Shown here piece after piece: positions 1 to 16,306 of a stretch of DNA of 64,000 nt (its first letter is position 1; every line of letters starts with the position of its first letter). The stretch covers positions 1,302,001 to 1,366,000 of the forward strand of contig NZ_CP044532.1 in the NCBI RefSeq assembly GCF_026427775.1, read 5' to 3'. The stretch is from Arthrobacter sp. CDRTa11. Lineage in GTDB: Bacteria > Actinomycetota > Actinomycetes > Actinomycetales > Micrococcaceae. The notes beneath the pieces are model-generated. The model made no database searches, had not been told where the DNA came from, and saw nothing but the letters and a program-made list of their open reading frames with translations. Made by a program: the position numbers and the translations under genes.

Positions 1-960
1 GACGGCGACGCCTCGCAGCGTTACTGGATGGAGCTGGTAAACGTAGACACGTGGGGGAGTGAGCTCATCGCTCCCGATACATCCCGATACGACCTGATGC
101 ATGACGTCCGAATCGGCGATGTCGTGCTTCACTGGGTGGGGAAAAACAATCCGATGGGATTCAAATCGGGGATGTACGGCGCCTCCATTGTGGCGGGCGA
201 GTTGCAGCCACGGGCGGGGGACTGGTTCGGCAAGCCTGCGAACACGATCCCGCTGACGGACTACACTCCGCTGCCGCGCCCGTATCTCTTGACGGATCTG
301 CGTGCTGACCATCAATCGGACATCCTTGGCATCAAGGGGAACCTCGAAACCGAATATCCTACTGGGCGCGGCAAATTCACAATTTACTTCCCCTTCCAGA
401 AACACCCCAAGAGCGGCCTGAAACCGAACCAGGGATATTTGTTCAAGCTTCCCGCGGAGGTCCTCCAGGCTGCCCCGGATTTGCTTCCTGATAGCGACTG
501 GGCCGGATTCGACCGGCCACTCGTCGCACCGCCTGTAAGCGGACAAAATGGCGTGAGGCAGCGCTACGCCGGATTCTGCGCCGATCCGGTCCTCAAGAAA
601 GCCATCGAGATGCAGGCGGTCCAGCAGGCGATTGTTCACTACGAAGCAGCAGGCTACAGTGTCGACGACGTCGGCGCCTTCCGCTCCTACGATTTACTGG
701 CAATACGTGGGGGCGAAGAGCGTCACATCGAAGTGAAGGGCTCTCAGGGATACGTCCAGAAAGTCATCCTGACGCGTAATGAGGTTACGCACGTTAATGA
801 CTATGGCCTGACGGACTTGGTAGTGGTGGCTGATATCCAGTGGGAGCGCCACCTCGATGGTTCCATCACCACCGACGACGGGACGATGAGTGTCTACCCG
901 GATTGGCGGCCTTCGCCGGAGAACCTGAAGCCGCTGAGCTACGAGTACTTCCTGGACTGA
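1..960 (+). CDS. EVE/PUA-like + NO VEIN (DUF3883) protein, 5' end outside window
   Basis: The reading frame is open from base 1, so the gene begins upstream of the window; an internal ATG lies at 28. The N-terminal 170 residues resemble the EVE/PUA-like fold that reads modified bases (pattern of GDVVLHW followed by an IVAGE segment). The C-terminal part, from about residue 200, matches the NO VEIN/DUF3883 domain, with a conserved YDLLA strand followed by HIEVKGS. This D...ExK arrangement is the pattern of PD-(D/E)XK nucleases. Function is inferred: a reader of modified DNA joined to a nuclease-like domain, acting in the cytoplasm against foreign DNA. It converges on the drmB end of the DISARM-like operon, separated by a strong terminator. 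Family assignment of the C-terminus is fairly sure; the N-terminal fold is a guess from pattern. Confidence 0.8.
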   Translation, partial: DGDASQRYWMELVNVDTWGSELIAPDTSRYDLMHDVRIGDVVLHWVGKNNPMGFKSGMYGASIVAGELQPRAGDWFGKPANTIPLTDYTPLPRPYLLTDLRADHQSDILGIKGNLETEYPTGRGKFTIYFPFQKHPKSGLKPNQGYLFKLPAEVLQAAPDLLPDSDWAGFDRPLVAPPVSGQNGVRQRYAGFCADPVLKKAIEMQAVQQAIVHYEAAGYSVDDVGAFRSYDLLAIRGGEERHIEVKGSQGYVQKVILTRNEVTHVNDYGLTDLVVVADIQWERHLDGSITTDDGTMSVYPDWRPSPENLKPLSYEYFLD

Positions 961-969
961 GACCCGGGT

Positions 970-1005
970 TTGCTTGGGGGGTCGGAGGACCGACCCCCCA
1001 AGCAA
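970..1005. terminator. Bidirectional terminator hairpin
   Basis: A perfect 16-bp inverted repeat (970-985 and 990-1005) with a 4-base loop lies between two convergent genes. It ends 4 bases before the stop of drmB on the minus strand and starts 10 bases after the stop of the DUF3883 gene. There is no clear T-tract, but stem strength and position support termination of both transcripts. Confidence 0.8.
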
Positions 1006-1008
1006 GCA

Positions 1009-3102
1009 CTAGTAGACCTTGTCGGCCAGCTTGTCCGCGAGGTCCGCGGGTGCAAAATCGTTCGTGTGGTAGGTAGTCCAACCTTGTTCCGCGAGCCAGT
1101 CGTCGCGTTCGTCATCCCGTTCGACAAGTACGGCAACCCGCGAGGGTGCCCACGATAGATCAACTTGCCACTGGTTCTCGGGGCCGATATCGGCGCCCCA
1201 ATCTCCAAGCTCCACATTCACCTCGACGAGCTCGGGAATGAGTTCCTGGAGCTCGGGACCGGATTCGGCGAAGACTGCCAACCAGGGGCTATGACGCACG
1301 CTGACAGGGACGTTGTCGTCGTGGGAAACGTCCGAAACGCTGCCTGGTCTTCCAGCGCTAGTGGTGGTCACCGGGTTTAGTGCTGCCCAGTCAATGAAGC
1401 CCAGCCCGATCTGACCATGAACGCCAAACAGGGAGCCCCGGTCGAGATTGGAATTGAAGAGTTCGCAGCTTGTTTCCGGCACAAGGACGCAGCAGTGGCA
1501 GGCCGCCAGGTTTCGTGCATCGGTACCAGATCCGCGGGACTCGATGCAGACAGGATCGGCCGAACACCAGGACGTGCGGAACAGTCCTTCATCCAAGGAA
1601 GGGCCGAGGCGCTTGGGGCTCGCCTGTGCTGCGATGCCGCCCAGGCTGCCTGCAGAGTCGGACGATGCCGTATACAAAAGCACTCCGACTTGATCCGGAC
1701 CCACATAGAGGCGTTCCCGAATCGACGACGCGGGGTAGCCAGCGTCCAGCGAAAGCTGGTCGATGATGATGTGGGAGAGCGTGTGGATCAGGGTTTCAAC
1801 AATGCTCACGGGAATCGGGTCCTGGCCGCGCTGCTCAGCTGCGCGCTTCGCATTCAGGCGGAGAGTTTTCTCCCTGCCGGCTGCGAAATCCGTTTCAGCC
1901 CAAGCCTCAACCTGTGATCGGTCCAGCGCCACAAAGAGTCCCTCACCCAGCGTCTCAATCGCGGGCAGCCAATTCGGGCGGTTGTCGTCAGGTGACAGCG
2001 GCGACAACTTGGCGTCAGGCTTGTCTTCGCTTTTGGGGTGCAGACGGCTAAAGCCGCACAAGGCGCGGACCTCTCTGAGCCGGGTGACCTTTCGTGCCGC
2101 CTTGATCCAGTGCTGATGGGCCTCCGGTACAGCGACTTTCTCAGCTACAAAATCGGTGTCCGGGCTGTCACGGCGGCCGTTCATCAGCGCTAGGAACTCC
2201 TGCTCTCGCAGCTGGTCCTCGGAAAGCTCAGTTTCCTCACTGCCATGGAATTGACGCCTGATTTCAGAGCGAAGTTCGTCCACGGAGAAGCGGCCGTCAA
2301 ATTCCTGAACCACGCCCTCGAGAACCCAAGTCGAACCGGGCTCCAGAGCCTGCGGTTGACTGAGCTGGGAAGTTTTTGACGTCACCACCTTGGCCAGAAA
2401 TTCGGAATATGGCGGGATCGAGATTGCCGACCGAACCACCGGGAACCAGACATTTGACGCGCCGCGCTGAACCGTCTTAGGAGCCTTGCCGCAGTCGCGT
2501 TCCCGATAACCCCAGCCGAGCCAAGGACGATTGCCTTGGCATTTCATCTCCCTCAATGCCACGGAATTGAACGCGTCCGCCATGGTCCGGGATTTCCCGC
2601 AAGAACACCGCACCACCATGTCTGCCAGCGATGAGGTGCGGCCTTCAGAAGCAAGGGAGAGCAAATGGTTAGCATCTTCAGTCGGCGTGAAGCCGTGTAC
2701 CCAGTAGGAATACGGGAAGTCATCGATATGTCCGTCTTCGCAGGCGACGACAAAGCGGGACGGGGTGAGCGGTGCCAAGGACTTGCACAAGCCACACTTC
2801 GGGTCCTCGTAGGAGGCCTGCAGCTGCTGAATACGTCCTAGTCGGTTGCAGTTAGGGCATACGAGCATTTGCGGAAACCGAACGACAGGAATCTTCCCGC
2901 GCGCGCCCGCTGGCGGCAGTAGAAGCTCGGCCACCCCCAAGCTACGGGCAAGGCGTGGCTCACTAACCGGTTTCAGGTGCTTCCTGTCCCATTGATCGAT
3001 GCTTGTGATCATGAAACTGTTGTTTTCGGCCGGGAATAGGCTCCCCACCCCGAACGTGGAGATCAACTGGCTGCGTCGTGCAGCGTAGGTCTTTCTAGCC
3101 AA
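1009..3102 (-). CDS. drmB: DISARM protein DrmB (DUF1998)
   Basis: This 697-residue protein matches DrmB, a core component of the DISARM anti-phage system that works together with DrmA. The N-terminus has the typical RRSQLISTFGVGSL opening. A cysteine cluster follows near residues 80-105 (CPNC ... CGLC), another near 160-200 (CSCG ... RERDC), and the C-terminal DUF1998 region near 535-560 holds CHCCVLVPETSCE, all likely zinc-binding. Its start overlaps the end of drmA by 8 bases, so the two are probably translationally coupled. It is the last gene of a minus-strand operon that also carries the methyltransferase and two further helicases. No nuclease motif is visible. Confidence in the family is high; the biochemical role of DrmB itself is to assist DrmA on DNA. 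Confidence 0.9.
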   Translation of the reverse strand: MARKTYAARRSQLISTFGVGSLFPAENNSFMITSIDQWDRKHLKPVSEPRLARSLGVAELLLPPAGARGKIPVVRFPQMLVCPNCNRLGRIQQLQASYEDPKCGLCKSLAPLTPSRFVVACEDGHIDDFPYSYWVHGFTPTEDANHLLSLASEGRTSSLADMVVRCSCGKSRTMADAFNSVALREMKCQGNRPWLGWGYRERDCGKAPKTVQRGASNVWFPVVRSAISIPPYSEFLAKVVTSKTSQLSQPQALEPGSTWVLEGVVQEFDGRFSVDELRSEIRRQFHGSEETELSEDQLREQEFLALMNGRRDSPDTDFVAEKVAVPEAHQHWIKAARKVTRLREVRALCGFSRLHPKSEDKPDAKLSPLSPDDNRPNWLPAIETLGEGLFVALDRSQVEAWAETDFAAGREKTLRLNAKRAAEQRGQDPIPVSIVETLIHTLSHIIIDQLSLDAGYPASSIRERLYVGPDQVGVLLYTASSDSAGSLGGIAAQASPKRLGPSLDEGLFRTSWCSADPVCIESRGSGTDARNLAACHCCVLVPETSCELFNSNLDRGSLFGVHGQIGLGFIDWAALNPVTTTSAGRPGSVSDVSHDDNVPVSVRHSPWLAVFAESGPELQELIPELVEVNVELGDWGADIGPENQWQVDLSWAPSRVAVLVERDDERDDWLAEQGWTTYHTNDFAPADLADKLADKVY

Positions 3103-6100
3103 GGGAGGCGTCCTTCCTCATAGGGGCTGGCCGAAGGGCGGTTTCGGCATCAACGTCGCGCATGCTTCGAGGTGTCGGCCAAGGAATGCTGCTCGTGCTG
3201 TAGACGAAGTCGGGATCTTCGAGGGCCTTGCTTGAATCGATGAGGAGCGAGCGGGGGGACTTCTTTGTGTCTTGGTATGGGAGATCATCGTCGGCAAGCG
3301 CAGCTTTCCGCCAGATGTTGAGCAGTCGCTCGAGCTCTTCACTCGTGGCCGCAGCTTCCTCCGGGTCAACAGCGAGGACCCGATTGCGTATCCACGACAT
3401 AATTTCGTCCACGGCTGGTGACTCATCCCGGACGTGGCCGGCAGAGCTTCTCAAATCGGGGACCAGCATTCTTAGCGCCGAGACCAGCGTGGCGTGAAGG
3501 CCGCGATCCCTCGATCTGGCTGCAAACGGCGTCGCGCTGGTTGCTTCAACGGCCCGATACAGGGCTCCGTGGAAGTCGTTGAAGGATTCGTAGTGTGAGC
3601 GGTCCCGTGTGCGCGCTGCGTTGAAGATGGTTACTACCAAGCCCGGGTGCTGTCGTCCGACGCGGCTTGTGGCCTGGATGTACTCAGCGCTTGATTGGGG
3701 CTGTCCCATGACCGCCATGAGACCCAGGCGGTCGACGTCCAGGCCAACTGAGATCATGTTCGTTGCCAGCACCACGTCTTCGGGTCTCTGGCTACTCATC
3801 AGGCTCTTCTCCAAAGACTTGAGCGCCTCCGGAATCTTGTGGTTTTCCACGCGGCTTGTGAGCTCACTCAATTGGATTTCACGCCCCTCGAGCCTGCCGT
3901 CTCGCTTGGCCAGCAGATTCAAGCGGGCCCGGACGTCGTCGTACACCTGCAGGTAGGCGGAGCCAAGCACGCGCAGGCTATTGAAGTAACCGACCAGCGT
4001 CCAGTACGGGTCGCGGTCCTCTGTTGCGGCCCCTTCGATAACGTTGGATGAGTGAAGTAGGGATGCGTAGGTGCGCACCATGAGCGTGGCGTGGCTCGTG
4101 CCAGATGCCAGGACGCCGACATATTGCCGTGTTCCGAACTGATCGGAGGGCGCCTTGTTGGCGAAGAAGGAGTCGTCGGGGTCAAGCCCGGGCGGCGGGA
4201 ACAGGCTGGAATCGCGGTTGAAGACGGAACGGATCTGATCCTTGGCTCTTCGGATTGTTGCCGTCGAGGCAATGATTTTAGGCTTTCGACTGGCGGAGCC
4301 ACCTTCGCGTCCTATGCCGCTTGCCGCCAGGTCGACCGCGGTTTCAAAGAGACCAACGGTTGAACCGAGGGGCCCCGAGATGAGGTGCAGTTCGTCCTGG
4401 ATGATGAGGTCCGGGCCTAGATCGGCAGGCGAGATACGTCCGAACAGGGTTGCGATTTCGCCTCGCCAGGACATACCGGCAAATTTGTCCACGGTCCCGA
4501 TCACGAGTTCTGGACGTTCACGGTAGACGTCTGTGTCGATAATGTGAACAGGTAGGCCGTTCGCGAACTCGCAAGCCGTGTTGGAGCAGCTGACGAGCAT
4601 CCGGTCAGACGGCACTTTGACGATCCGATAGTCGTCGACCGTTAGCCGAGTGCCGCACCAAGGGCAGGCCTCGATCTGCTTCGGGTTTCCTTCGACGACT
4701 TCCTGATTGTTGCGAAGCTTTCCCAGATTCGTTCGTGCAGTTGCGATGTCGTTCGGCGTTGCGCCTCCGCCCACCCAAAGTCCGATGCCGAACGGTGCTT
4801 CGCCAACCCGGTCCTTATTCTCCAGCCGAACCGATTCCAGGGAACAAATGAGCATAGCAGCACGCTCGAATTGTTGGATCGTCAGAAGCCGGAGCGTATA
4901 CCGCATGATCACGGCCACGCCGCGGACACTTGTGTTCCGCAGCCGTCGGAGCAGCAGGAGGTATGCGACAAGCCCCAGATAGGCTTCTGTCTTTCCTCCA
5001 CCTGTGGGGAACCATAGGAGATCAGCGGTGTCGCGTTCCAAGTGCTGATCGTCGGTTACTGACGGCAAGTTAATGAGGATGAACGCAATCTGGAAGGGTC
5101 GCCACGCCTGGGCGCCAAGCACGAACTCGCCTCCAGCACCTTTCCGGACCCAGTCCTGGCGCGAACGCTGCATGTGCATAGCCCGATTCGCCAGCTGGAA
5201 CGCCTCAAAGGCTTTGTCATCGTTGACCAGCAGCTGAATGCCCGCTCTAATGCGGGCGTGAGCGGTCCCGGCCTGCTTCATGTGTTCGGCCGCGACATCT
5301 CGCAAGTGCGGCGGGACCTGGGCCGCGCCGTCCGCTGTCACAGAGTCACTGGATGCAGTGATCCACGAAGAGTAGTCCTCCGCGAGCAAGTTCAACTGCG
5401 CGACGACGTCGTCGCGGGTAGCCGAACCCATGAACGAGAGCGACAGGTTGGCATGGCTGACGCCAGCCATGGACCGGTGGACATCCTGCCGGGGAACAAA
5501 CGTGGTGGTCACTCGCTGACAGAGCCGGCCATCGACGTCGGACGCCTCCACATCGACCGCACAGCCGTGCCCGGCGCCGAAGACCATGTGGTTTCGGTAG
5601 AGGAGTTCGGAAGACGCCAGGTCGGGGTCCGAGGGAAGGGTGGTGCGCAGCTTCGAACGATCCACAAGAGCGTGCTTCTCGGTATGAACGGAAAGGCCGG
5701 CCTGAAACCAGCACGCCACGTCTTTATCTGATGTGGGGTCAGGCTTGGGCTGCGTGTTCCGCAGCACCACGGTCACGGTGACGACAGTCTCTTCGGGAAT
5801 GCGTACCAAGGCGTATAGCTCCAAAGCCCCGCCCTCCAACAGATGCCTTTGTGGCCCAGCTGAAGCCAGGTCGATTTCCACCTCGGGGAGTTCTGCAGGC
5901 AAACGCTGCCAGTCATATACGTCGCGGCGCTTGCTATCGCTGTCCCGGACAGTGGGGATTGGCGCATATCTGGCGGCAGTAGGCGAGACGAGAAGGACGG
6001 TAGAAAGCGTGGTGTCGACGGAGACCGTCATGCCTACGCTGCTCGGGTAGGTCAGCCGTGCGTTCGCCACGGGGCTGTCGACGGAGGCCTCGCCGGAAGT

Positions 6101-6301
6101 GGCAGCTACGGACTCCGGTTCGTCCGGGGCCTCGGCATACGTGTCATCTGCAGCCGGCCAAAGCACTCCTGTCACATACCGCTCTAAAGGCCGCTCCGTG
6201 ATGAGCTCATCGGAAGCACCGGGCCCGTAGAGGTCGGTGACAAGGCGATCCACGATTTCGCGGCGGAAGGCGTATTTACTGTCCAGTTTCGACACTTTCA
6301 T
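3095..6301 (-). CDS. drmA: DISARM helicase DrmA
   Basis: This 1068-residue SF2-type helicase matches DrmA of DISARM. Walker A (FPTGGGKTEAYLGL) lies near residue 433, the Walker B-like QDELHLISGP near 634, SATIRR near 680, and the arginine-finger motif ATSRVGRQHPGL near 880. A zinc ribbon (CPWCG ... CSNTAC) is inserted at about 545-575, between motifs I and II. The first 400 residues are a long domain without motifs I can name. DrmA is known to bind DNA and, with DrmB, to block unmethylated incoming DNA. It starts 4 bases after the UvrD-like gene with an AGGAGA just before the ATG, and its end overlaps drmB. Length is normal for the family and the frame is intact. Confidence 0.9.
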   Translation of the reverse strand: MKVSKLDSKYAFRREIVDRLVTDLYGPGASDELITERPLERYVTGVLWPAADDTYAEAPDEPESVAATSGEASVDSPVANARLTYPSSVGMTVSVDTTLSTVLLVSPTAARYAPIPTVRDSDSKRRDVYDWQRLPAELPEVEIDLASAGPQRHLLEGGALELYALVRIPEETVVTVTVVLRNTQPKPDPTSDKDVACWFQAGLSVHTEKHALVDRSKLRTTLPSDPDLASSELLYRNHMVFGAGHGCAVDVEASDVDGRLCQRVTTTFVPRQDVHRSMAGVSHANLSLSFMGSATRDDVVAQLNLLAEDYSSWITASSDSVTADGAAQVPPHLRDVAAEHMKQAGTAHARIRAGIQLLVNDDKAFEAFQLANRAMHMQRSRQDWVRKGAGGEFVLGAQAWRPFQIAFILINLPSVTDDQHLERDTADLLWFPTGGGKTEAYLGLVAYLLLLRRLRNTSVRGVAVIMRYTLRLLTIQQFERAAMLICSLESVRLENKDRVGEAPFGIGLWVGGGATPNDIATARTNLGKLRNNQEVVEGNPKQIEACPWCGTRLTVDDYRIVKVPSDRMLVSCSNTACEFANGLPVHIIDTDVYRERPELVIGTVDKFAGMSWRGEIATLFGRISPADLGPDLIIQDELHLISGPLGSTVGLFETAVDLAASGIGREGGSASRKPKIIASTATIRRAKDQIRSVFNRDSSLFPPPGLDPDDSFFANKAPSDQFGTRQYVGVLASGTSHATLMVRTYASLLHSSNVIEGAATEDRDPYWTLVGYFNSLRVLGSAYLQVYDDVRARLNLLAKRDGRLEGREIQLSELTSRVENHKIPEALKSLEKSLMSSQRPEDVVLATNMISVGLDVDRLGLMAVMGQPQSSAEYIQATSRVGRQHPGLVVTIFNAARTRDRSHYESFNDFHGALYRAVEATSATPFAARSRDRGLHATLVSALRMLVPDLRSSAGHVRDESPAVDEIMSWIRNRVLAVDPEEAAATSEELERLLNIWRKAALADDDLPYQDTKKSPRSLLIDSSKALEDPDFVYSTSSIPWPTPRSMRDVDAETALRPAPMRKDASLG

Positions 6302-6305
6302 TCTC

Positions 6306-8111
6306 CTAATCCTTGATCCGGCTGATAAGTCCGGTAAGCCGGGGTACCAGCCACATTCCGGAGGAACCGAGTCCTGCGAGTTTGGTCTCCTCCGGATGAC
6401 CGGTGGCGCACTCGATGGAAGTGACCCGGGCGCCGGTAAAGGCGATGGGCCACTCTTGGCCGCGGTGTCCTTTGAAGCCGAAATTCTTCTTCAGTGCGTA
6501 CGCAAAAGATTGACTCGTTCGGCCAAGCACGCTGCCGTCGCTGGTAGTTAGCGTGTAGCGGGGAACGTCACCGGGTTCGGGCTGGGAGTAAATGCGGCCG
6601 GAAACGACTTCTCCCAGAAGGTCATCCAGTACAAGGCTGTTTTGCACCGCCTGAGCGTCTTCGTCTGCTGGGTAATAGGGCGAAACGTCGTCGATGTCGG
6701 AATTCACGAACTCCATCCGCGCCGTGTATTGACCGGATTTCCCGTAACCCTTCTCCAGCCATCGTCCCGTTGACCCGTCGGCGCGCTTGAGGATCTTTTT
6801 CGGCAGTTTGGTGGAGACGATCTCTTCCCGGGCACGGCTCAGGGCTACGTACTTCTGCTTCAAGGTAGCTGCGTTCTGTTCTGCGGCGGGAGATCCGAAC
6901 TCCGGTTGCAGGTAAAGGACATTGGTGAACTCGAGCCCTTTGGCCCGATGTACTGTCGAAACGATCAACGGGGCGACATCGGCCACCGTGAGGGTCAACG
7001 GGATCGATCTGCTGCGCAGCCGTTGGCTGAGCTGGGGGACATTTAGTGAGTCGTACGCTGAGAAGTTGCCCTCGGCTGTCTTCAACGCGAGCCAGCGGTC
7101 GGCAGCTGCGTCTCCGAAGAGCTGTTGCAGGCGTGACTTTATCTCATCGGCGTCGTACGTCCTGTCTTCCAAATCCTTGAAGACCTGATGAACCCAAGGC
7201 GCCACACTCATGTCCTGTGCCTTCCGCCGGATCAGGTGCGGATACCCGTTCTCCCACAGGAGTTCACTCGCGATGAGGACTTCGTAATTTGTCGAACACA
7301 AAAGGGCGGTCGTGTCGCCGTCATTCGGACTGAGCGCACCGGACTCATTCAGCACGGAGGTGCTGGAAACTTCCCTGCGGAAGTCGTCGAGCAGGCTATG
7401 CGCGGCTTCGCACGCTGGGTTGTCGAGCGCTCCGAGGCTGCGGATCTCGTCGCCAACGGAGATCAGCTCCCTCGTGCGATCGGTCACCGCCCTGTAGTGC
7501 TTTGCCAGCGTCTGTCGCTCGGCGCCAAACTCCTTGACGAGGGTCTCGATGAGCTCCACCGAGGTGAGTTTGGATTCGGATTCTTCCAATTGAAAGTCGT
7601 AAATGCCTTGCAATGGGTCGCCGAGCACTGTGAAACCGAAGTCGTCACCCAGGACGGAGAACAACGCCAAGACTAGCTCCGCGCGGTCTCCCACGAGGTC
7701 CTGAGCTTCGTCGACCAGGATGTGCTTCAGATATGTGAGCCGATCGGGCGTCTCGTCTCCGGCGATATATTTCGTGGCTTTTCGGATCCGGGCGTCAAAG
7801 CTGTCGCCCAGAGTCTCTTCGTCCATGTCGATCAGAATCTGCGCCGCAAAGGAGTCGAAAGTACGGATTTGAAGTCCATCGAGATCATGGATGCGTGCCC
7901 GTTTCCTGACAGCTTCGACAGCCGCCCGGGAAAAGCTGAGCACGAGGATTTCGTCGGCGGGATTCAAGCCATCTTCTACCAAGGTCTTTACCCGGGCCAG
8001 AAGGACCTCTGTTTTTCCTTGCCCGGCCGCGGCCGTCACGAACATTCGCGCATCCGGCTCGGCTTCCGCAACGTCTCGCTGGCTTTCGTCCAGTTCAATC
8101 TCGGCGAGCAC
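6306..8111 (-). CDS. UvrD/Rep-like SF1 helicase in the DISARM-like operon
   Basis: An SF1A ATPase of about 601 residues. Motif I (TAAAGQGKTEV) lies near residue 27, the Walker B VDEAQDLV near 135, motif V STVHRAKGLEF near 388 and motif VI ALSRAREE near 424. A longer frame runs to 8288, but I prefer the GTG at 8111: it forms a TAGTG stop-start overlap with the upstream gene, has GGAAAGA at proper spacing, and the extra 59 residues are low-complexity Arg/Pro. It presumably translocates on DNA. Canonical DISARM has no UvrD-like subunit, so its tight coupling here (1-base overlap upstream, 4-base gap downstream to drmA) suggests an accessory or replacement subunit. The C-terminal 130 residues are unrecognised. 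Confidence 0.88.
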   Translation of the reverse strand: MLAEIELDESQRDVAEAEPDARMFVTAAAGQGKTEVLLARVKTLVEDGLNPADEILVLSFSRAAVEAVRKRARIHDLDGLQIRTFDSFAAQILIDMDEETLGDSFDARIRKATKYIAGDETPDRLTYLKHILVDEAQDLVGDRAELVLALFSVLGDDFGFTVLGDPLQGIYDFQLEESESKLTSVELIETLVKEFGAERQTLAKHYRAVTDRTRELISVGDEIRSLGALDNPACEAAHSLLDDFRREVSSTSVLNESGALSPNDGDTTALLCSTNYEVLIASELLWENGYPHLIRRKAQDMSVAPWVHQVFKDLEDRTYDADEIKSRLQQLFGDAAADRWLALKTAEGNFSAYDSLNVPQLSQRLRSRSIPLTLTVADVAPLIVSTVHRAKGLEFTNVLYLQPEFGSPAAEQNAATLKQKYVALSRAREEIVSTKLPKKILKRADGSTGRWLEKGYGKSGQYTARMEFVNSDIDDVSPYYPADEDAQAVQNSLVLDDLLGEVVSGRIYSQPEPGDVPRYTLTTSDGSVLGRTSQSFAYALKKNFGFKGHRGQEWPIAFTGARVTSIECATGHPEETKLAGLGSSGMWLVPRLTGLISRIKD

Positions 8112-11100
8112 TACGAACCGTCTTTCCACAGGTAGTCGAGCTGGGTAAACGCAAGCTTGTCGCCGTACTGGTCTAAGTTGTCCTTGACGTTGACTATGAG
8201 GACCTCTTGGCTTCCGCCGTTGAGCGGTCCCCGGAGCCCGCGGCCGATCATCTGGATGTATTTGTTCGGCGAGAACGTAGGCCGGCAAACGTATACGGCG
8301 TCGACCTTGGGTGCGTCGAAACCTTGGGTAAGCACGTCGAAGTTGGTGAGCACGCGGATCTTTCCGTTGCGAAAATCCTCGATTATGGAGCGTCGGTGGC
8401 CCAAGTCCGTTTTTCCCGAGATGGCCGCTGCAGGAACGCCCTCAACGGACAGGACAGCTGCGAGAGCTTCGGCGTGTTCCACTGAAGCAGCGAAGACCAG
8501 GGTGGGCCCCTTCGTCTCAGAAGCCTTGATATGGTCGAGGATCGCTTCGTTGCGCTGCTTGCTGTCCGCTACGTGCTGCAGGTCGATCCGGGCTTCGAGC
8601 ATTGCACTTTGCGAATCCTCGTCCGTGGCCGAGCGCATGTCTTTCAGCTTGAGCTCGATACCCTTCAGCTCGCGATGCTTGACCTTGGCCAGAACGCCCA
8701 TACCCTGGAGATACTCGTGGGCGTTTTCTGCGCTGAACTCATCCGGCTCGATAAGGTTTCGTCCGAATCGGGCAACGAGCCGCTCAGTCTCCTTCTCGTT
8801 CGTGCCCCGATACGGTGTGGCTGAAAGACCGAGCAGCGACCGGGACTTTTCGGTGAATGAGCGGCCGAACCAGGAGAGAACCGGAGTGTAAGACGTTGCG
8901 GTCGCCCCATGGGCTTCATCAATGATGACCAGGTCAGGGTTAGACATCCATTCGTACATTGAGCGACGGGTCTGTTGGATGCTGGCGAGCGTTTGAATGG
9001 TTGCCACGACAAGGTGAAGTTTGGTCTCCTCTCGGACAGCGCTGTTGCCACCCCAGAGCCTACTCACGGCCATCCGCTCGCCGGGAGCTCCCGCCGCCTG
9101 CCACACGTAGGTCCAGGTTTCGATGGCCTGCTCGCAGAGTTCTTCGGATTGAGCTACCCAGATGACGAGGCGGTGTTCCTCCTTTGGCGTGGCTTTGATA
9201 TCCCGGATTACGGATTCAACTGCCACGCGAGTCTTGCCAGCACCCGTGGGCAATTGAACCAGACCGCGGCTGTGCTTTGTGCCCCCGGTGAGGAGGTCAA
9301 CGATCTTCTTACTGGTTGTTTCCTGGTACTGGTGAAGAGGGTTCAAACCCACCGGTCCAACGAACTCCTCGCGCTCCGGCTTCTTCTTGATGGATTCACC
9401 GGCCATTGCGGGGGAAAACCCGAGCTCTTTGACGAACTCTTGGGCCGTGCGCCCACCGCGGAAGTGATCAGGAGTTTCAATGCCAGCTTCAGACAGGGCA
9501 GGCTTGAGCACTTTGAGGAGGCTGCTGCCGTGCAAATTGCTGACGATTTCGAACAAGCGTTCGTCGGTGAGCTCGAGTTCACGGGCATCCAGCATCTTCA
9601 TGATCGCGTCTGGAATTAGCTTTCGAAGGGTCTCACGACCAACAAGTTCGGCGATCTTTCCGGCATCAGTCTTTTGTTTGTTGACTCGTCCAATTCGAGC
9701 TTGGGCTTCGTCGTCCTTTTTGAGCTGCCGCATTGTCTGCATGACCTGCGCTGTCGCGCGTTTACTGCCGAAGGCACCGAGAATTGTTGTGAGCAACGCC
9801 TGGTCACCCTGCGGGGCCCGGTAGTAGAGGACACCATCCTGGAGGTAGGACGCTTTGGGCGTAGCTTCCGCGCGCGAGTCGAAGCTGTTCGTTCGGACTT
9901 CGTCTACGGAAGTGCAAGGAACGCATAGGGTCTGGACGGCAACTTCACTTGCTGCGCGTTTAAGGAACGGAAACTTCGACTTAACGCTTTCGGGTGTCTC
10001 CCCTTCTACAGGCGTAGCGCGGGCTGAGGTATGGAACTCGACTGTGACCGGTTTGAGCCCCCAGTTCTGGGCTAGCGCTTCGTCCAAATCTGGATGACCG
10101 GTGTATATGACGGGCGCGTCCGCTGTTTCAGCCAGATAGTCGCGGGAGTCGAGATCCGCAGCCAAAATTACATCAGACGTCAGGTAGCGTGTGTTTCGCC
10201 CTCCGCTGAGAGGGGTTAGAAGTTCCTTCGGTGGACGCACATCGAGGACGGCTAGCGCGCCATAGAGTTCGTGCAACTGGAGAATGGGCAGCCGCTGTTC
10301 TGCCAACGAAAGGACGAAACTCCATTGGACCTTGCGTGTATCGGTGGGCAGTCCCAACGCCTTGGCTTCCTCCTCACCGGGAAATGGCAAGTAGTCTGTG
10401 GGAATCCCATCGATTTCGCCCACGCAGTGCTTGGTGTCCACTAAGCCGAGAGGGGTTTCAAAAGCGCCGTGGTTTTTAACCCACCAAAGGTCCGGCCCGT
10501 CGATTGTTTCAGCGGCTCTAAAGCCGCTGCTGAACTCAACTTTTGTCGGGTACTGCGCCCGGCCCAAAATTGTTCTCGTAACCTTTGCTCGGGTGGCTGC
10601 AGACGCATCCGCCAACAGGTGGAGACCATCTGTAGTCAAAGCCTGGCTAAAGCGGATCCCCGCTTCGGAAAGACCGACGGGTCCGTTCCGGGACTCATTT
10701 GAAAAACGGGTTGCCTCTTGCCCTTTCCACAAATCGTAGGTGCCCCCGGCGCGGACCATCTTCGAGTCCGGAAGTGACGTTCGTGCACCAAGATTTCTCA
10801 GAAGGGCGAGGTCGTGGGCGTGGAACTGATCGTCTACTAGAATGTGCTCATCCCCGATATTGGTCTGGGGAATCAGACCACCCGGCACCCAGACATCACC
10901 GAGCGTGCGCCACTTGTGATCGCGGCAACGAACGAGAATTTTTGTCGGTTCTGTCCTCTCATTAAGTATGGAGAGACTTTCCGGAACGGACAGCGACCGG
11001 GTTAATTTCCAAAGGGATCCAGCTAGTTCTGAGTCTAGATAGTCTCCCGCGACGTCGCTCGCGACACGATTGACGATACCTCTGCCGTCTTGCGCCTGGA

Positions 11101-12760
11101 GATCAAGGGCCCGAAGGTAAGCGTTCGCATTCCCATGATGCATAAGCTCGTAAGACACAACATTGGCTGCCTCGTCATCCACCTTCATGGGCAGAAATAC
11201 TCTCGAGGTGATTGGCGGTTGGACGCTGCCATCTGACATGAGCACAATCCGGCTTCGTCGCATTGCGGGCCGGTAGTCGGTGTAAGACTTGTCGATCATC
11301 GCTGCGATCTGTAGGGCGTTTTCATAATCCTGGAGCCCTGCACCTGCGACAACTTCTTCCAGCCACTCCTCGATGGATGCGCGCTTGAGATTCGCTTCCT
11401 TCAAGATGCGTATTACCTGGGATTCCCGCCGCAAGGCTGACGAGTGTAGCCAGTGCCGGTCCGCTGGCACCCATGTGTCCCACAGAGAGATGAGTCGAGT
11501 GGCTTCTTCCAGTGCTGGTTGTACTTTGATTTCACTGGGGCGCCTGAGTACGCCTGATCTGTCCGGCAGACAGGGTGCGAATGGCAGAATTTCAAAAATG
11601 GGTTTGTTGATAACGGAGTCGGCCCACGAACTTGACTCCTTGTCACGCGACGGCAGAATGTCCAGAAAGAGAGCTGGATCTTCTGGTGTCCTGAGGTCGT
11701 TTAGGGCGCTTGCCACCATACGGGGAAGCGTCCGGATTAGAATTTCCCGGTTGTAGAGGGTCTCCAGCATGCTATGGCGGTCTTCGTTCATTTTGAAGGC
11801 CGCGTTAACGATGCCGCGAAGCGAAGTCTCGTGCTGAGTCGGGAAGTAGTTCCAGAATCGACCCATCTTGCGCCGCTGGTTGCCTGTCAACGGGACAGCC
11901 CAAGTCACGTCGACATTTTGTCGCGCAACGATGCTTCCGGCCTCGATCGCAGCTTGAGGGCTGACTTCGTGCTTGTGTTTGAATATCAGCCATTCGCTAC
12001 TGTTGGCGCCGTCATAGAGGCTGACACGGCTGCCGTCGCGTGTTGCTGTCCACGTCCAGGAAGAGCTTTGGGCCCTGTCCTCAAATTCAAGGGAACCAAT
12101 TTTGTCCGAGAAGAGCAGGAACTCCTCGGGAAACTTCTTCATTTCCTCCGAGAGCCAGGTGACGCTGCCACTCAGGGGAAGCTTGACCACCGTGGTCGCC
12201 CATCCAAATAGCTCAGAGAGGACGGGGTCCTTGGCGGCCTCGATGTCGGGGTCCACAGGCGAGGCTAAGCGAAGAATGGGATAGGCAGTCAGACCCGGGT
12301 ACAGGTTTTCGAGGAGCTTTCGGCTTTGATCCTGGCTCCATGAAACCGAGCCGCTGCGGCTAAATATCCGTGGTTCATCAGTCACCTGAATAACTGATTT
12401 AAAGCCAAGCCCGAAACGGCCGATCTCGTCATCACGCTTTTCAGAGGAGTGAGACAGCATCAGCGTCCTGAAACCTGCCTCGGTAAAGGGTGCCCCTTCG
12501 TTCGCGCAATAAAGGGCATTCGTTGTCAGGACAACTCGGATGCGTCCGCCGGGTTCCTTAATGGCGTCTGCAGCGTTTTGGACCAGTTCGTTTAGCTGTT
12601 TGCGACCGTAGCCGCCTTGGGAGATGGCGGCCTCAATATTGCTGTGTTCTCGGACGAGGTCCGGGCGGGCGCGATACGCATTCAGCGCGCTCTCAGTTTC
12701 AGCCGCGACGAACTTGCTCAGCGGCGACGTCCTACCCGCCCATGAATCCCGAACCATCAT
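8111..12760 (-). CDS. Sacsin-type GHKL ATPase fused to SF2 DEAH helicase
   Basis: A protein of about 1549 residues. The first 200 residues form a GHKL/HSP90-like ATPase: N-box ELVQNAADA near residue 60, then GRFGLGFKSVIQV near 115. The middle 900 residues show no motif I can name. The last 380 hold an SF2 helicase: PTGAGKTRVAVES near 1170, IIDEAHGA near 1282, LSATPYRG near 1310, and a helicase-C end with QGFDAPKVD and QMIGRGLRG near 1490. The longest frame begins at 12778, but an ATG at 12760 follows GGGGGAC at good spacing. It is cotranscribed with the methylase upstream and UvrD, drmA and drmB downstream. In class 2 DISARM the large first subunit is DrmE; this fusion sits in the corresponding place. 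Role inferred: an ATP-driven sensor or remodeller of phage DNA. Confidence 0.85.
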   Translation of the reverse strand: MMVRDSWAGRTSPLSKFVAAETESALNAYRARPDLVREHSNIEAAISQGGYGRKQLNELVQNAADAIKEPGGRIRVVLTTNALYCANEGAPFTEAGFRTLMLSHSSEKRDDEIGRFGLGFKSVIQVTDEPRIFSRSGSVSWSQDQSRKLLENLYPGLTAYPILRLASPVDPDIEAAKDPVLSELFGWATTVVKLPLSGSVTWLSEEMKKFPEEFLLFSDKIGSLEFEDRAQSSSWTWTATRDGSRVSLYDGANSSEWLIFKHKHEVSPQAAIEAGSIVARQNVDVTWAVPLTGNQRRKMGRFWNYFPTQHETSLRGIVNAAFKMNEDRHSMLETLYNREILIRTLPRMVASALNDLRTPEDPALFLDILPSRDKESSSWADSVINKPIFEILPFAPCLPDRSGVLRRPSEIKVQPALEEATRLISLWDTWVPADRHWLHSSALRRESQVIRILKEANLKRASIEEWLEEVVAGAGLQDYENALQIAAMIDKSYTDYRPAMRRSRIVLMSDGSVQPPITSRVFLPMKVDDEAANVVSYELMHHGNANAYLRALDLQAQDGRGIVNRVASDVAGDYLDSELAGSLWKLTRSLSVPESLSILNERTEPTKILVRCRDHKWRTLGDVWVPGGLIPQTNIGDEHILVDDQFHAHDLALLRNLGARTSLPDSKMVRAGGTYDLWKGQEATRFSNESRNGPVGLSEAGIRFSQALTTDGLHLLADASAATRAKVTRTILGRAQYPTKVEFSSGFRAAETIDGPDLWWVKNHGAFETPLGLVDTKHCVGEIDGIPTDYLPFPGEEEAKALGLPTDTRKVQWSFVLSLAEQRLPILQLHELYGALAVLDVRPPKELLTPLSGGRNTRYLTSDVILAADLDSRDYLAETADAPVIYTGHPDLDEALAQNWGLKPVTVEFHTSARATPVEGETPESVKSKFPFLKRAASEVAVQTLCVPCTSVDEVRTNSFDSRAEATPKASYLQDGVLYYRAPQGDQALLTTILGAFGSKRATAQVMQTMRQLKKDDEAQARIGRVNKQKTDAGKIAELVGRETLRKLIPDAIMKMLDARELELTDERLFEIVSNLHGSSLLKVLKPALSEAGIETPDHFRGGRTAQEFVKELGFSPAMAGESIKKKPEREEFVGPVGLNPLHQYQETTSKKIVDLLTGGTKHSRGLVQLPTGAGKTRVAVESVIRDIKATPKEEHRLVIWVAQSEELCEQAIETWTYVWQAAGAPGERMAVSRLWGGNSAVREETKLHLVVATIQTLASIQQTRRSMYEWMSNPDLVIIDEAHGATATSYTPVLSWFGRSFTEKSRSLLGLSATPYRGTNEKETERLVARFGRNLIEPDEFSAENAHEYLQGMGVLAKVKHRELKGIELKLKDMRSATDEDSQSAMLEARIDLQHVADSKQRNEAILDHIKASETKGPTLVFAASVEHAEALAAVLSVEGVPAAAISGKTDLGHRRSIIEDFRNGKIRVLTNFDVLTQGFDAPKVDAVYVCRPTFSPNKYIQMIGRGLRGPLNGGSQEVLIVNVKDNLDQYGDKLAFTQLDYLWKDGS

Positions 12761-12876
12761 TGGTTCCGTCCCCCACATCGAAATCAGTGCTTTCGGCGTC
12801 CACCGAAGTCTTCAAGACAATATTTACCATCCAGATGTGACATTTATGCTAAGCCAGGCTTATTAGGCTCGATCTA

Positions 12877-13986
12877 CTAGAAATGTTGCAGCAGTTGAGC
12901 CGCAATGGCGCGTCCAAGGGCTGTCGGAACTGCGTTGCCGATCTGCTTGGCGATCGCGGTCTTGGACCCGACCCACAGTCGATCGTCCGGGAAGCCCTGG
13001 AGCTTTGCGGCTTCAAGGTGGGTGATGGCACGGTGTTCGACGGGGTGAAGATATCGGCCTTTTTCTGGCTTGAAAAATTCGGTTCTGACGGTGACTGAAG
13101 GCTTATCCCAATGCATTCGGCCCATGACATCCCCGGAGCCAGATTCGTGCTTCAGCCAGCAGGCTGCTTTGAGGTTTTTGGGCAGATCGAACCGGTTGCC
13201 GCCTGCGGGAATGTTAACAAACCTGTTCAACGACAGTTCTGCGTAGTCACGGCCAAGATGAAGCTCGGACGTTTGAAATGATCCCGTGAAGGTCCTACCG
13301 GCGTACTGTGTTGTGCGCTCCGGAAGCTTCGTCTCGGATACCCGCGACATCACGCCTTTGAGTGCTTGCCGGACTGTACGATGACGACCTACATGTGAGG
13401 GCATCGGAAAGCCGGGGAAGGGCAAGTCCCGGTGGTGACCAATCAGAATTGCTCTCTTACGTGCTTGCGGTGCGCCATAGTCCGCTGCGTTGAGGACGTG
13501 CCATTGGAAGTCGTAGTCCCGGATGAGCCCTTCCGGACCGGTAGCATCCCGGAAGTCCTGAAGCTGCTGGGACTTGCTGAAGGCTGGAACGTTTTCGACG
13601 ATGAAATATTTCGGCTTCGCCCGGCGAAGCGCCTCAGCGTACGGGCGCCAGAGTTGGTTCCTAACATCGTCCGGGTCTTGCTTGCCAAGCTGCGAGAACC
13701 CCTGGCACGGCGGTCCACCAATGACAACATCTACCTCGGGAACAGCTTCGTTCCCTAGCCAGTCCTGAATCGGTCCTGGGTAAACTTTGTCGCCAAAGGT
13801 TGCCGCGAACGATGCCGCCGCCGCCGGTTCGAACTCCACGGCGCGTTCGGTAACGAATCGAGGAGAGGCGGCATAGAACCCCTGAGTGAGTCCGCCGGCT
13901 CCCGAGAAGAGGTCCAACACGGTGATGGAGTTGGGGGTCTTCTTTCGTGCGTAGGGTGCGGACTTGCTAACAGGATCTCTACTCAT
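12877..13986 (-). CDS. DNA (cytosine-5) methyltransferase, DrmMII-like
   Basis: A 369-residue m5C methyltransferase that transfers methyl from S-adenosylmethionine to cytosine C5. Motif I LDLFSGAGGLTQGF is at about residues 24-37, the catalytic-loop motif IV GGPPCQGFSQLG near 92 with the nucleophilic Cys, motif VI ENVPAF near 131, and motif X QIGNAVPTALG near 346. All key motifs are intact. It is the first gene of the minus-strand run ending in drmB, with a 116-base gap to the fused helicase. In class 2 DISARM an m5C methylase (DrmMII) marks host DNA as self, and that role is inferred here. No good ribosome-binding site precedes the ATG. A conventional type II methylase partner to a nearby restriction enzyme is the alternative, but no type II endonuclease is recognised. 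Confidence 0.9.
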   Translation of the reverse strand: MSRDPVSKSAPYARKKTPNSITVLDLFSGAGGLTQGFYAASPRFVTERAVEFEPAAAASFAATFGDKVYPGPIQDWLGNEAVPEVDVVIGGPPCQGFSQLGKQDPDDVRNQLWRPYAEALRRAKPKYFIVENVPAFSKSQQLQDFRDATGPEGLIRDYDFQWHVLNAADYGAPQARKRAILIGHHRDLPFPGFPMPSHVGRHRTVRQALKGVMSRVSETKLPERTTQYAGRTFTGSFQTSELHLGRDYAELSLNRFVNIPAGGNRFDLPKNLKAACWLKHESGSGDVMGRMHWDKPSVTVRTEFFKPEKGRYLHPVEHRAITHLEAAKLQGFPDDRLWVGSKTAIAKQIGNAVPTALGRAIAAQLLQHF

Positions 13987-16161: not shown

Positions 16162-16306
16162 GGATAGCTCTCCATCGTTTTGCCTCGAGATCAACTGATC
16201 TGCAGTTGGTGCACTACAAAAACAACTTCATAGTAGATGTCTATGCGTATCCCAACGGTAAGGCGCAGCCCTGAATTGATGAATTGTGCTGCGAAAACCG
16301 CTGCCT

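What the first reader, a model, noticed from the sequence alone, without database searches (positions are those of the whole stretch)
1009..13986. DISARM-like operon with a GHKL-ATPase/SF2-helicase fusion and a UvrD helicase in place of known class-specific subunits
Seen: drmB, drmA, a UvrD-like gene, a 1549-residue GHKL-SF2 fusion and an m5C methylase on one strand, the last four genes joined by overlaps or a 4-base gap and the methylase 116 bases upstream of the fusion. Known: class 1 DISARM has drmD and an adenine methylase, class 2 has drmE and an m5C methylase, and both carry drmC (phospholipase D). Here drmC, drmD and drmE are not seen. Inference: this is a variant class in which the ATPase-helicase fusion takes the sensing role and UvrD assists. 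I cannot exclude that it matches a recently named DISARM-related type.
Basis: partly seen in the sequence, partly recalled or inferred. Interest (0 to 1): 0.85.

Follow-up and report, generated by a model that had tools for sequence, protein, structure and literature searches.

The report
DISARM-like operon with Hsp90-like helicase
A soil actinobacterium carries a recurring version of a known anti-phage defence system, not found described in the papers searched, in which an Hsp90-like ATPase fused to a DNA helicase and a second helicase stand where the usual nuclease and partner proteins would be, next to a DNA-marking enzyme that close relatives have exchanged.

Summary
In detail: m5C methylase, GHKL-SF2 fusion (FUS), UvrD, DrmA and DrmB lie on one strand with overlaps or tiny gaps. 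DrmA and DrmB match the solved DISARM core. FUS-UvrD-DrmA-DrmB in this order and direction recurs in 66 of 83 FUS loci, those 66 all Actinomycetota. Their DrmAs form one branch (36 of 57 rows, one without FUS; support 100), apart from class 1-like DISARM (10 rows, 99). drmC was found in none of 84 fetched loci, while each of four drmC queries was found by two others. Left of the window is no drmC but a convergent ARMADA type II-like operon, with a second FUS paralogue beyond it. FUS is modular: without its helicase part it heads Mza-like operons, behind a related methylase. In 4 of 5 near relatives with a readable methylase the backbone is 79-94% identical but the methylase 24-27%: it was swapped. 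No paper found describes this combination; one preprint says many uncharacterised DISARM-like classes exist. Verdict: a real, conserved new variant of a known kind. FUS as sensor, and the way phage DNA is stopped, remain inference.

The parts
12877..13986 (-). m5C DNA methyltransferase (369 aa), the only PF00145 match in the 5.16 Mb genome
   Evidence: PF00145 E 8.7e-55; PADLOC DruM2/MTase_II/DrmMII; 1 match in own genome
8111..12778 (-). FUS: N-terminal GHKL/Hsp90-sacsin-type ATPase, about 650-residue middle, C-terminal SF2 helicase (1555 aa)
   Evidence: PADLOC TmtA E 1.9e-50 on 20-475; ResIII/Helicase_C on 1148-1516; conserved ATPase and helicase motifs in 81 aligned members; model of 1-1140 matches Hsp90 and sacsin
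6306..8111 (-). UvrD/GajB-like SF1 helicase, probable start GTG at 8111 (the ORF opens at 8288)
   Evidence: PF00580 E 1e-20, GajB E 4e-22; junction TAGTG; model matches UvrD 2is6 E 3e-16 and GajB 8jqb E 3e-11
3095..6301 (-). DrmA, YprA-family SF2 helicase (1068 aa)
   Evidence: PADLOC DrmA E 1.3e-237; PDB 7s9v_A E 2.2e-168
1009..3102 (-). DrmB, DUF1998/MZB protein (697 aa) with an extra C-terminal stretch of about 130 aa, seen in the window and L020-L025 among 67 members compared
   Evidence: PADLOC DrmB E 6.9e-70; PDB 7s9v_B E 4.3e-79; C-termini compared
970..1005 (.). perfect 16-nt inverted repeat between the two convergent operons, a likely shared terminator
28..960 (+). NOV_C-domain protein, behind the GajB-like gene of the convergent ARMADA-like operon (neighbour, not a part of the DISARM-like operon)
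   Evidence: PF13020 E 3.4e-7; present in L020-L025
14098..16194 (-). GmrSD type IV restriction protein upstream, same strand, 111 bases before the methylase; no counterpart cluster in the relatives' loci, probably an independent neighbour
   Evidence: PF03235/PF07510, PADLOC HEC-06; unclustered

Best explanation
The operon encodes an anti-phage system of the DISARM kind in which DrmA-DrmB is the DNA-loading motor core, the UvrD/GajB-like protein is an additional strand-separating motor, and FUS is an ATP-gated Hsp90/sacsin-like clamp fused to a second SF2 motor that most likely recognises an aberrant DNA state (ends, forks, unmarked DNA) and commits the complex to it. The m5C methylase marks self DNA and is an exchangeable front-end. 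Without a recognised nuclease of its own the complex probably blocks or unwinds incoming or replicating phage DNA and leaves degradation to host or neighbouring nucleases. Shown: gene identities, intact conserved motifs, conserved order, one branch of DrmA partners, lack of drmC nearby, methylase exchange. Inferred: anti-phage function, sensor role of FUS, complex formation, block or unwinding as the effector step, self-marking.
For: DrmA/DrmB homology to the cryo-EM core, which a paper describes as autoinhibited by a trigger loop and activated by 5' overhang DNA, with DrmC apparently non-essential (PMC9142583, passages). The alignment runs from DrmA residue 69 against chain residue 216, inside the trigger-loop region 176-232, so a loop of that place remains while the N-terminus is about 150 residues shorter. 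FUS-uvrD-drmA-drmB co-directional in 66 of 83 loci. Among 396 sampled genomes of the phylum 4 match the 1130-aa N-terminal FUS query over its whole length, with open frames of 1566-1738 aa, and these 4 hold the 4 best-scoring DrmAs among 24 DrmA genomes (without the own genome 3 of 3, about 2e-4 by my own hypergeometric arithmetic). The DrmA partners are one branch. FUS is also joined to a second, distant DrmAB lineage that carries a NERD-helicase in the UvrD place (L065, L080, L087, L098). Motifs of both FUS ATPases, UvrD and DrmA are conserved. m5C-type methylases (a broad cluster) lie in the loci of 79 of 86 FUS copies, although 20 genomes examined hold only 1-11 PF00145 match pieces each and the own genome one. 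Defence island: ARMADA-like operon and GmrSD next door.
Against: No functional data. UvrD-DrmA-DrmB also exists without FUS. The methylase is within 1 kb of FUS in only 22 of 86 copies, and in some loci it sits with Vsr or NaeI-type genes, so there it may be an independent type II system. No site class in FUS, UvrD, DrmA or DrmB follows the methylase type (3, 0, 1, 0 sites, fewer than for other pairings), which gives no support for a direct reading of the methylated motif. FUS does not split cleanly by context in its own tree. The C-terminal extra stretch of DrmB and the middle of FUS were not identified, so a hidden nuclease is not excluded.
Confidence: 0.6

Rival explanations
1. Two systems side by side: m5C methylase plus GHKL protein is one exchangeable module (Tiamat- or Mza-like), UvrD-DrmA-DrmB another, and the operon is a co-mobilised pair without joint function.
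For: m5C plus helicase-less FUS heads the same three gene clusters in L027, L028, L030, L032, matched to MzaB, MzaD, MzaC for L027, and similar annotated genes on plasmid NZ_KJ410765; among the 15 methylases compared the window's is, after L025, closest to those four (53-69%); UvrD-DrmA-DrmB without FUS in L100, L102, L106, L114.
Against: FUS stop and probable UvrD start overlap; order conserved in 66 of 83 loci over many families; FUS joined to two DrmAB lineages. In the Mza-like loci FUS lacks its SF2 part together with DrmAB, but other DrmAB-less copies (L019, L085, L093, L096, the own second copy) keep full length, so this point is weak.
Confidence: 0.2
2. A degenerate class 2 DISARM that lost drmC and drmE; FUS and UvrD are accessory.
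For: m5C methylase as in class 2; DrmC reported as apparently non-essential.
Against: DrmA partners form their own branch; no drmC relative in 84 fetched loci. No confirmed class 2 DrmA was in the tree (the candidate L111 carries DrmMII, but its 801-aa gene matched no PADLOC model), so this stays open.
Confidence: 0.12
3. FUS, UvrD and DrmAB are a module of the neighbouring ARMADA system: one large composite defence array.
For: armC in 13 of 50 FUS genomes, in 9 just beyond the fetched locus by coordinates; G278 has UvrD-DrmA-DrmB ... armA-armB-armC-armD-FUS on one strand within about 40 kb; a paper shows ARMADA synergy with Druantia (PMC12458937).
Against: 37 of 50 FUS genomes have no armC match at that threshold; in the window the two operons converge on an inverted repeat.
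Confidence: 0.05
4. DNA repair or maintenance operon rather than defence (YprA/MrfA-like).
For: Most of the enzymes are DNA motors; YprA/MrfA relatives repair DNA (PMC12458937).
Against: Patchy: full-length FUS in 4 of 396 genomes; methylase swapping; defence neighbours.
Confidence: 0.03

Closest known systems
DISARM (class 1 and class 2)
   Same: DrmA and DrmB as adjacent genes, DNA methylase, solved core complex homologous
   Different: No drmC; no drmD in the operon; no drmE in the rows shown; adds FUS and UvrD; DrmA on its own branch apart from class 1
ARMADA type II (Bell et al. 2025 preprint, PMC12458937)
   Same: YprA-family helicase with a GajB-like UvrD helicase and a methylase; physical neighbour here
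   Different: ARMADA has BrxHII-like helicase, PglX-like methylase and a one-piece YprA with DUF1998; the window operon has split DrmA/DrmB, an m5C methylase and FUS
Tiamat (PADLOC TmtA; that TmtA stands for Tiamat is recalled)
   Same: N-terminal GHKL region, E 1.9e-50
   Different: The match covers residues 20-475 and positions 9-448 of a 1538-position model; FUS has an SF2 helicase end and operon partners
Mza (PADLOC MzaB, MzaC, MzaD)
   Same: m5C methylase plus a 50-55% identical GHKL protein precede MzaB-D-C-like genes in relatives
   Different: No SF2 part in that GHKL protein, no UvrD, no DrmAB there
Gabija GajB
   Same: UvrD-like helicase related to GajB
   Different: No GajA in the rows shown for the 8 window proteins scanned

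Membership tests
DISARM, any class | DrmA helicase and DrmB DUF1998 protein as adjacent genes | tested here: met
DISARM, any class (PADLOC type I/II definition, PMC9252829, passage) | DrmC phospholipase D-like protein | tested here: not met
   four DrmC queries, each found by two others; 0 of 84 FUS loci. PLDc_2 matches in the own genome lie at least 1.6 Mb away even if the contig is circular. A paper calls DrmC apparently non-essential
DISARM class 1 | DrmD and DrmMI adenine methylase in the operon | tested here: not met
   only in the convergent ARMADA-like operon left of the window
DISARM class 2 | DrmMII m5C methylase | tested here: inconclusive
   m5C methylase present, best DrmMII score E 1.9e-43 against DruM2 1.5e-92
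DISARM class 2 | DrmE | tested here: inconclusive
   no DrmE in the rows shown for 8 window proteins (best 25 each), but the only candidate positive control gave no match either
DISARM class 1 | DrmA on the class 1 branch | tested here: not met
   10 class 1-like rows one branch (99), window with 35 others on another (100)
ARMADA type II | BrxHII-like helicase, PglX-like methylase, one-piece YprA, RelE-GajB helicase | tested here: not met
   not in the window operon; four matching proteins in L002 next door; the RelE part and inserted domains of those were not tested
Tiamat | TmtA over its whole length | tested here: not met
   only residues 20-475 match
Mza | MzaB, MzaC, MzaD partners | tested here: not met
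   none in the rows shown for 8 window proteins; present in relatives of the GHKL part
DISARM and all above | anti-phage activity | not testable with these tools
   needs phage assays

The most novel reading that the evidence does not exclude
A third class of DISARM built on an Hsp90/sacsin-like sensor-helicase, in which an interchangeable 'methylase plus GHKL' front-end is plugged into at least two different effector back-ends (UvrD-DrmA-DrmB and MzaB-C-D), so that the GHKL protein is a general read-out unit for foreign DNA across several defence families, and the motors alone, without an own nuclease, stop the phage.
Probability: 0.35. Interest if true: 0.78.

Novelty: new variant of a known kind. 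Interest (0 to 1): 0.62.

Why it matters
The DISARM-like clade of YprA helicases is said to hold many uncharacterised classes (PMC12458937, legend). This one recurs across Actinomycetota, is internally consistent, and gives a direct test of two open questions: how DISARM-type systems work without a nuclease, and what GHKL (Hsp90-, MutL- and sacsin-like) ATPases do in bacterial immunity. The swap of the methylase on a nearly unchanged backbone, and the use of a related front-end before unrelated effectors, would be a clear case of modular self/non-self recognition.

Tried and rejected
drmC beyond the window edge: rejected. A strict PLD motif scan gave 0 of 84 loci, but it recognised only 1 of 4 annotated DrmCs, so it was dropped and replaced by tblastn and a profile; a looser motif gave 5 ORFs, 2 of them in the methylase cluster, not followed further. 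DrmB's C-terminal stretch as a general replacement nuclease: rejected, only the window and L020-L025 have it among 67 members. Co-variation of the backbone with the methylase type: no signal. DrmA in viral contigs (pattern scan) and phage records: none. A class 2 DrmA for the tree: not obtained; the four extra DISARM hits looked at were class 1 or class-1-like, and L111, first labelled class 2, could not be confirmed. It and L116, both long branches, were left out of the second tree, whose result agrees with the first. The label class 1 is loose: of its 10 rows some lack drmD or drmC in the stretch seen (L107, L108, L109, L112, L152, L153, L154). My first guess of the UvrD start (8114) was wrong: the codon there is GTA; the UvrD model starts one residue before the GTG at 8111. 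One-linkage ORF clusters missed uvrD in some loci, so the counts of order use tblastn. The FUS tree (FastTree, 38 rows) shows FUS does not split cleanly by context: 8 changes for the DrmAB-UvrD label; it places the window's FUS beside the Mza-like copies. That tree labels every FUS copy not otherwise named as DrmAB-UvrD linked, and the copies in L026, L041, L049, L098 as second copies. Pfam gave no family for several neighbours.
Full report
1. What is there. The window lies at G000:C1:1302001-1366000 of a 5.16 Mb one-contig genome. Nearest named relatives of the fusion are Pseudarthrobacter and Arthrobacter (94% and 90%), so the host is probably a Micrococcaceae soil bacterium (inference). On the minus strand, in the order of transcription: m5C methylase, FUS, UvrD, DrmA, DrmB. 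FUS and UvrD overlap at TAGTG, UvrD and DrmA are 4 bases apart, DrmA and DrmB overlap by 8. DrmA and DrmB are genuine: PADLOC E 1e-237 and 7e-70, and the only PDB sequence relatives at E 0.001 are the two chains of the DISARM core 7s9v/7s9w.

2. The fusion. Residues 20-475 match PADLOC TmtA (1.9e-50; Tiamat by recall), residues 1148-1516 an SF2 helicase; the best solved sequence relative of that part is RadD (3.8e-19). ELxQNxAD, IGRFGxG, and the helicase motifs GAGKT, DEAH, ATP, QGFDAP and QMxGRGLRG are conserved at 93% or more in 81 aligned members (that these are the ATPase and helicase motifs is recalled). UvrD (AxAGxGKT, DExQDL, HRAKGLE; 60 members) and DrmA (FPTGGGKT, DELH, SRVGR; 71 members) are likewise intact. 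The UvrD model (26 sequences, pLDDT 86.7, pTM 0.85) matches UvrD (3e-16) and GajB (3e-11).

3. Left of the window. L002 (the 20 kb to the left) holds, on the plus strand and convergent with our operon, a DrmD/BrxHII-like helicase (953 aa), a PglX/IIG-like methylase (1540 aa), a YprA helicase with MZB (2121 aa) and a GajB-like UvrD (765 aa), followed by the NOV_C gene at window 28-960. The first four are the gene set and order of ARMADA type II as described in PMC12458937 (parts 1-4 of 8 and the legends read). Divergent from it lies a second FUS paralogue, 29% identical (L015:14848-19998, cut by the end of that stretch). A perfect 16-nt inverted repeat separates the two convergent operons.

4. 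Conservation. With L017-L019 these are 83 loci; some lie on the same contig (L089/L093; L049/L099), so they are not all independent. 66 of 83 show FUS-uvrD-drmA-drmB as neighbours among the tested genes, in order and co-directional. The other 17: 3 with a NERD-helicase in the UvrD place (L065, L080, L087); 2 cut by the end of the stretch (L018, L047); 3 with drm genes on the facing strand (L026, L049, L098); 1 with an armD-like gene (L093); 8 with none of the tested genes after the main FUS (L019, L027, L028, L030, L032, L041, L085, L096), of which L041 has another, partial FUS before uvrD-drmA-drmB and L019 follows armD. The sample is biased toward close relatives of the query. A less biased sample: among 396 genomes of the phylum matches to the 1130-aa N-terminal FUS query at 1e-20 occur in 9, over the whole query in 4; DrmA at 1e-60 in 24; the 4 best DrmA scores are those 4 genomes (2398, 1091, 812, 785 bits; next 582). 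In G278 the two genes are about 29 kb apart, with ARMADA between.

5. Phylogeny. In a DrmA tree of 54 de-replicated rows the FUS-UvrD rows (34) plus the Tsukamurella plasmid row form one branch (99); the four FUS+NERD-helicase rows form another, distant one (100). Rebuilt with more class 1-like rows and the G278 row and without two long branches: 36 of 57 rows (35 FUS, 1 Tsukamurella), support 100; 10 class 1-like rows, 99. Support is SH-aLRT from a short search. No confirmed class 2 DrmA was available.

6. Modules. In L027, L028, L030, L032 and on plasmid NZ_KJ410765 an m5C methylase and a helicase-less FUS relative (50-55% identical) head three further genes; for L027 these match MzaB, MzaD and MzaC. 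The window's methylase is 53-69% identical to those of the four contigs. Among the near relatives L020-L025 the proteins FUS, UvrD, DrmA and DrmB are 79-94% identical to the window's; L020 ends before the methylase; of the other 5, L025 keeps the methylase (88%), L021-L024 have a methylase only 24-27% identical in the same place. So the methylase has been exchanged on a stable backbone. No backbone site class follows the exchange. m5C-type methylases (one broad cluster) lie in the loci of 79 of 86 FUS copies, 22 of them within 1 kb; the 7 without are L018, L019, L020, L085, L095, L096, L099, some of them cut by a contig or locus end. The own genome has one PF00145 match in all, this one. In several loci the methylase sits with Vsr or NaeI-type genes, so it need not always belong to the DISARM-like unit.

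7. ARMADA linkage. armC was sought in the genomes of 50 of the 80 scan loci and found in 13. In 9 (L020, L022, L023, L025, L029, L074, L076, L086, L092) the coordinates continue directly beyond the fetched stretch; that they are the same contigs is inferred from the coordinates and from arm or NOV_C genes at the locus edge. L021 has an armD match at its edge but no armC match. On the Tsukamurella plasmid UvrD-DrmA-DrmB is followed head to tail by genes whose annotation fits ARMADA, and a 464-aa RelA/SpoT-domain protein stands in the FUS place.

8. Mechanism. The solved DrmAB core is described as autoinhibited by a trigger loop, activated by 5' overhang DNA, with DrmC apparently non-essential (PMC9142583, passages). 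Our DrmA aligns from residue 69 to chain residue 216, so a loop before PSSxGMT remains, while the N-terminal part is about 150 residues shorter. I infer a motor complex that loads on aberrant phage DNA, with FUS as an ATP-gated clamp and second motor, UvrD as a third motor and methylation as self-mark. Pfam shows no nuclease domain in the five proteins; blocking or unwinding, or host nucleases, are the likely end step. A paper on Druantia III reports inhibition of phage DNA circularisation and replication by a helicase system without a canonical nuclease domain (PMC13316683, passages); against this parallel, another abstract calls the same helicase, DruE, a helicase-nuclease effector (PMC13192584, abstract start in listing).

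9. What is known. PADLOC's DISARM types I and II require DrmC (PMC9252829, passage). [quoted passage not shown] GHKL, Hsp90 and Tiamat do not occur in its main text; its supplements were not read. PMC11090510 mentions a DISARM-like system beside McrBC without detail (passages). Two further papers were looked at by passages and had nothing on this operon (PMC10693628, PMC13118837). Ten library searches showed, among the rows listed, no paper that describes this combination; the original DISARM paper is not held, and what I say of it is recalled. Subscription papers and most preprints are outside the library.

Noticed in passing
L002:3771-19918 and window 28-960: ARMADA type II-like operon just left of the window, followed by a NOV_C-domain gene that is conserved in the Arthrobacter-type relatives (cluster 14, 7 loci with the own one).
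   Followed up: partly
L015:12495-19998: Second GHKL-SF2 fusion in the same genome (29% identical to the first), divergent from ARMADA, followed by a 751-aa protein with pentapeptide repeats. Two FUS copies near each other also occur in L041, L098 and on the L049/L099 contig.
   Followed up: partly
L027:8594-18989, L150:7182-17386: m5C methylase plus helicase-less GHKL protein in front of MzaB, MzaD, MzaC-like genes: a hybrid of two defence families.
   Followed up: partly
L100:11741-13135: Tsukamurella plasmid: a 464-aa RelA/SpoT-domain protein stands in the FUS place before UvrD-DrmA-DrmB.
   Followed up: no
L102:3520-18576, L106:1353-14955, L114:852-14967: Alphaproteobacterial UvrD-DrmA-DrmB-NERD-helicase operons without FUS, with different large neighbours; a sister variant.
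   Followed up: partly
L070:6938-9088 and neighbours; clusters 5, 7, 6: In Streptomyces and some other genera a divergent three-gene module (HTH protein of about 716 aa, 331 aa, DUF6339 protein; PADLOC PDC-M33A/C candidates) sits upstream of FUS (cluster 5 in 47 loci).
   Followed up: partly
window 1009-1420 (DrmB C-terminus): Extra C-terminal stretch of about 130 aa on DrmB in the window and L020-L025 only, among 67 members; looks like a Vsr/DUF559-type fold to my eye, not tested.
   Followed up: no
L101:8084-16934: Streptomyces fungicidicus plasmid: a 1273-aa protein with an MzaA match precedes DrmA-DrmB, another unusual front-end.
   Followed up: no
window 14098-16194: GmrSD-type type IV restriction gene directly upstream of the methylase, same strand.
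   Followed up: no
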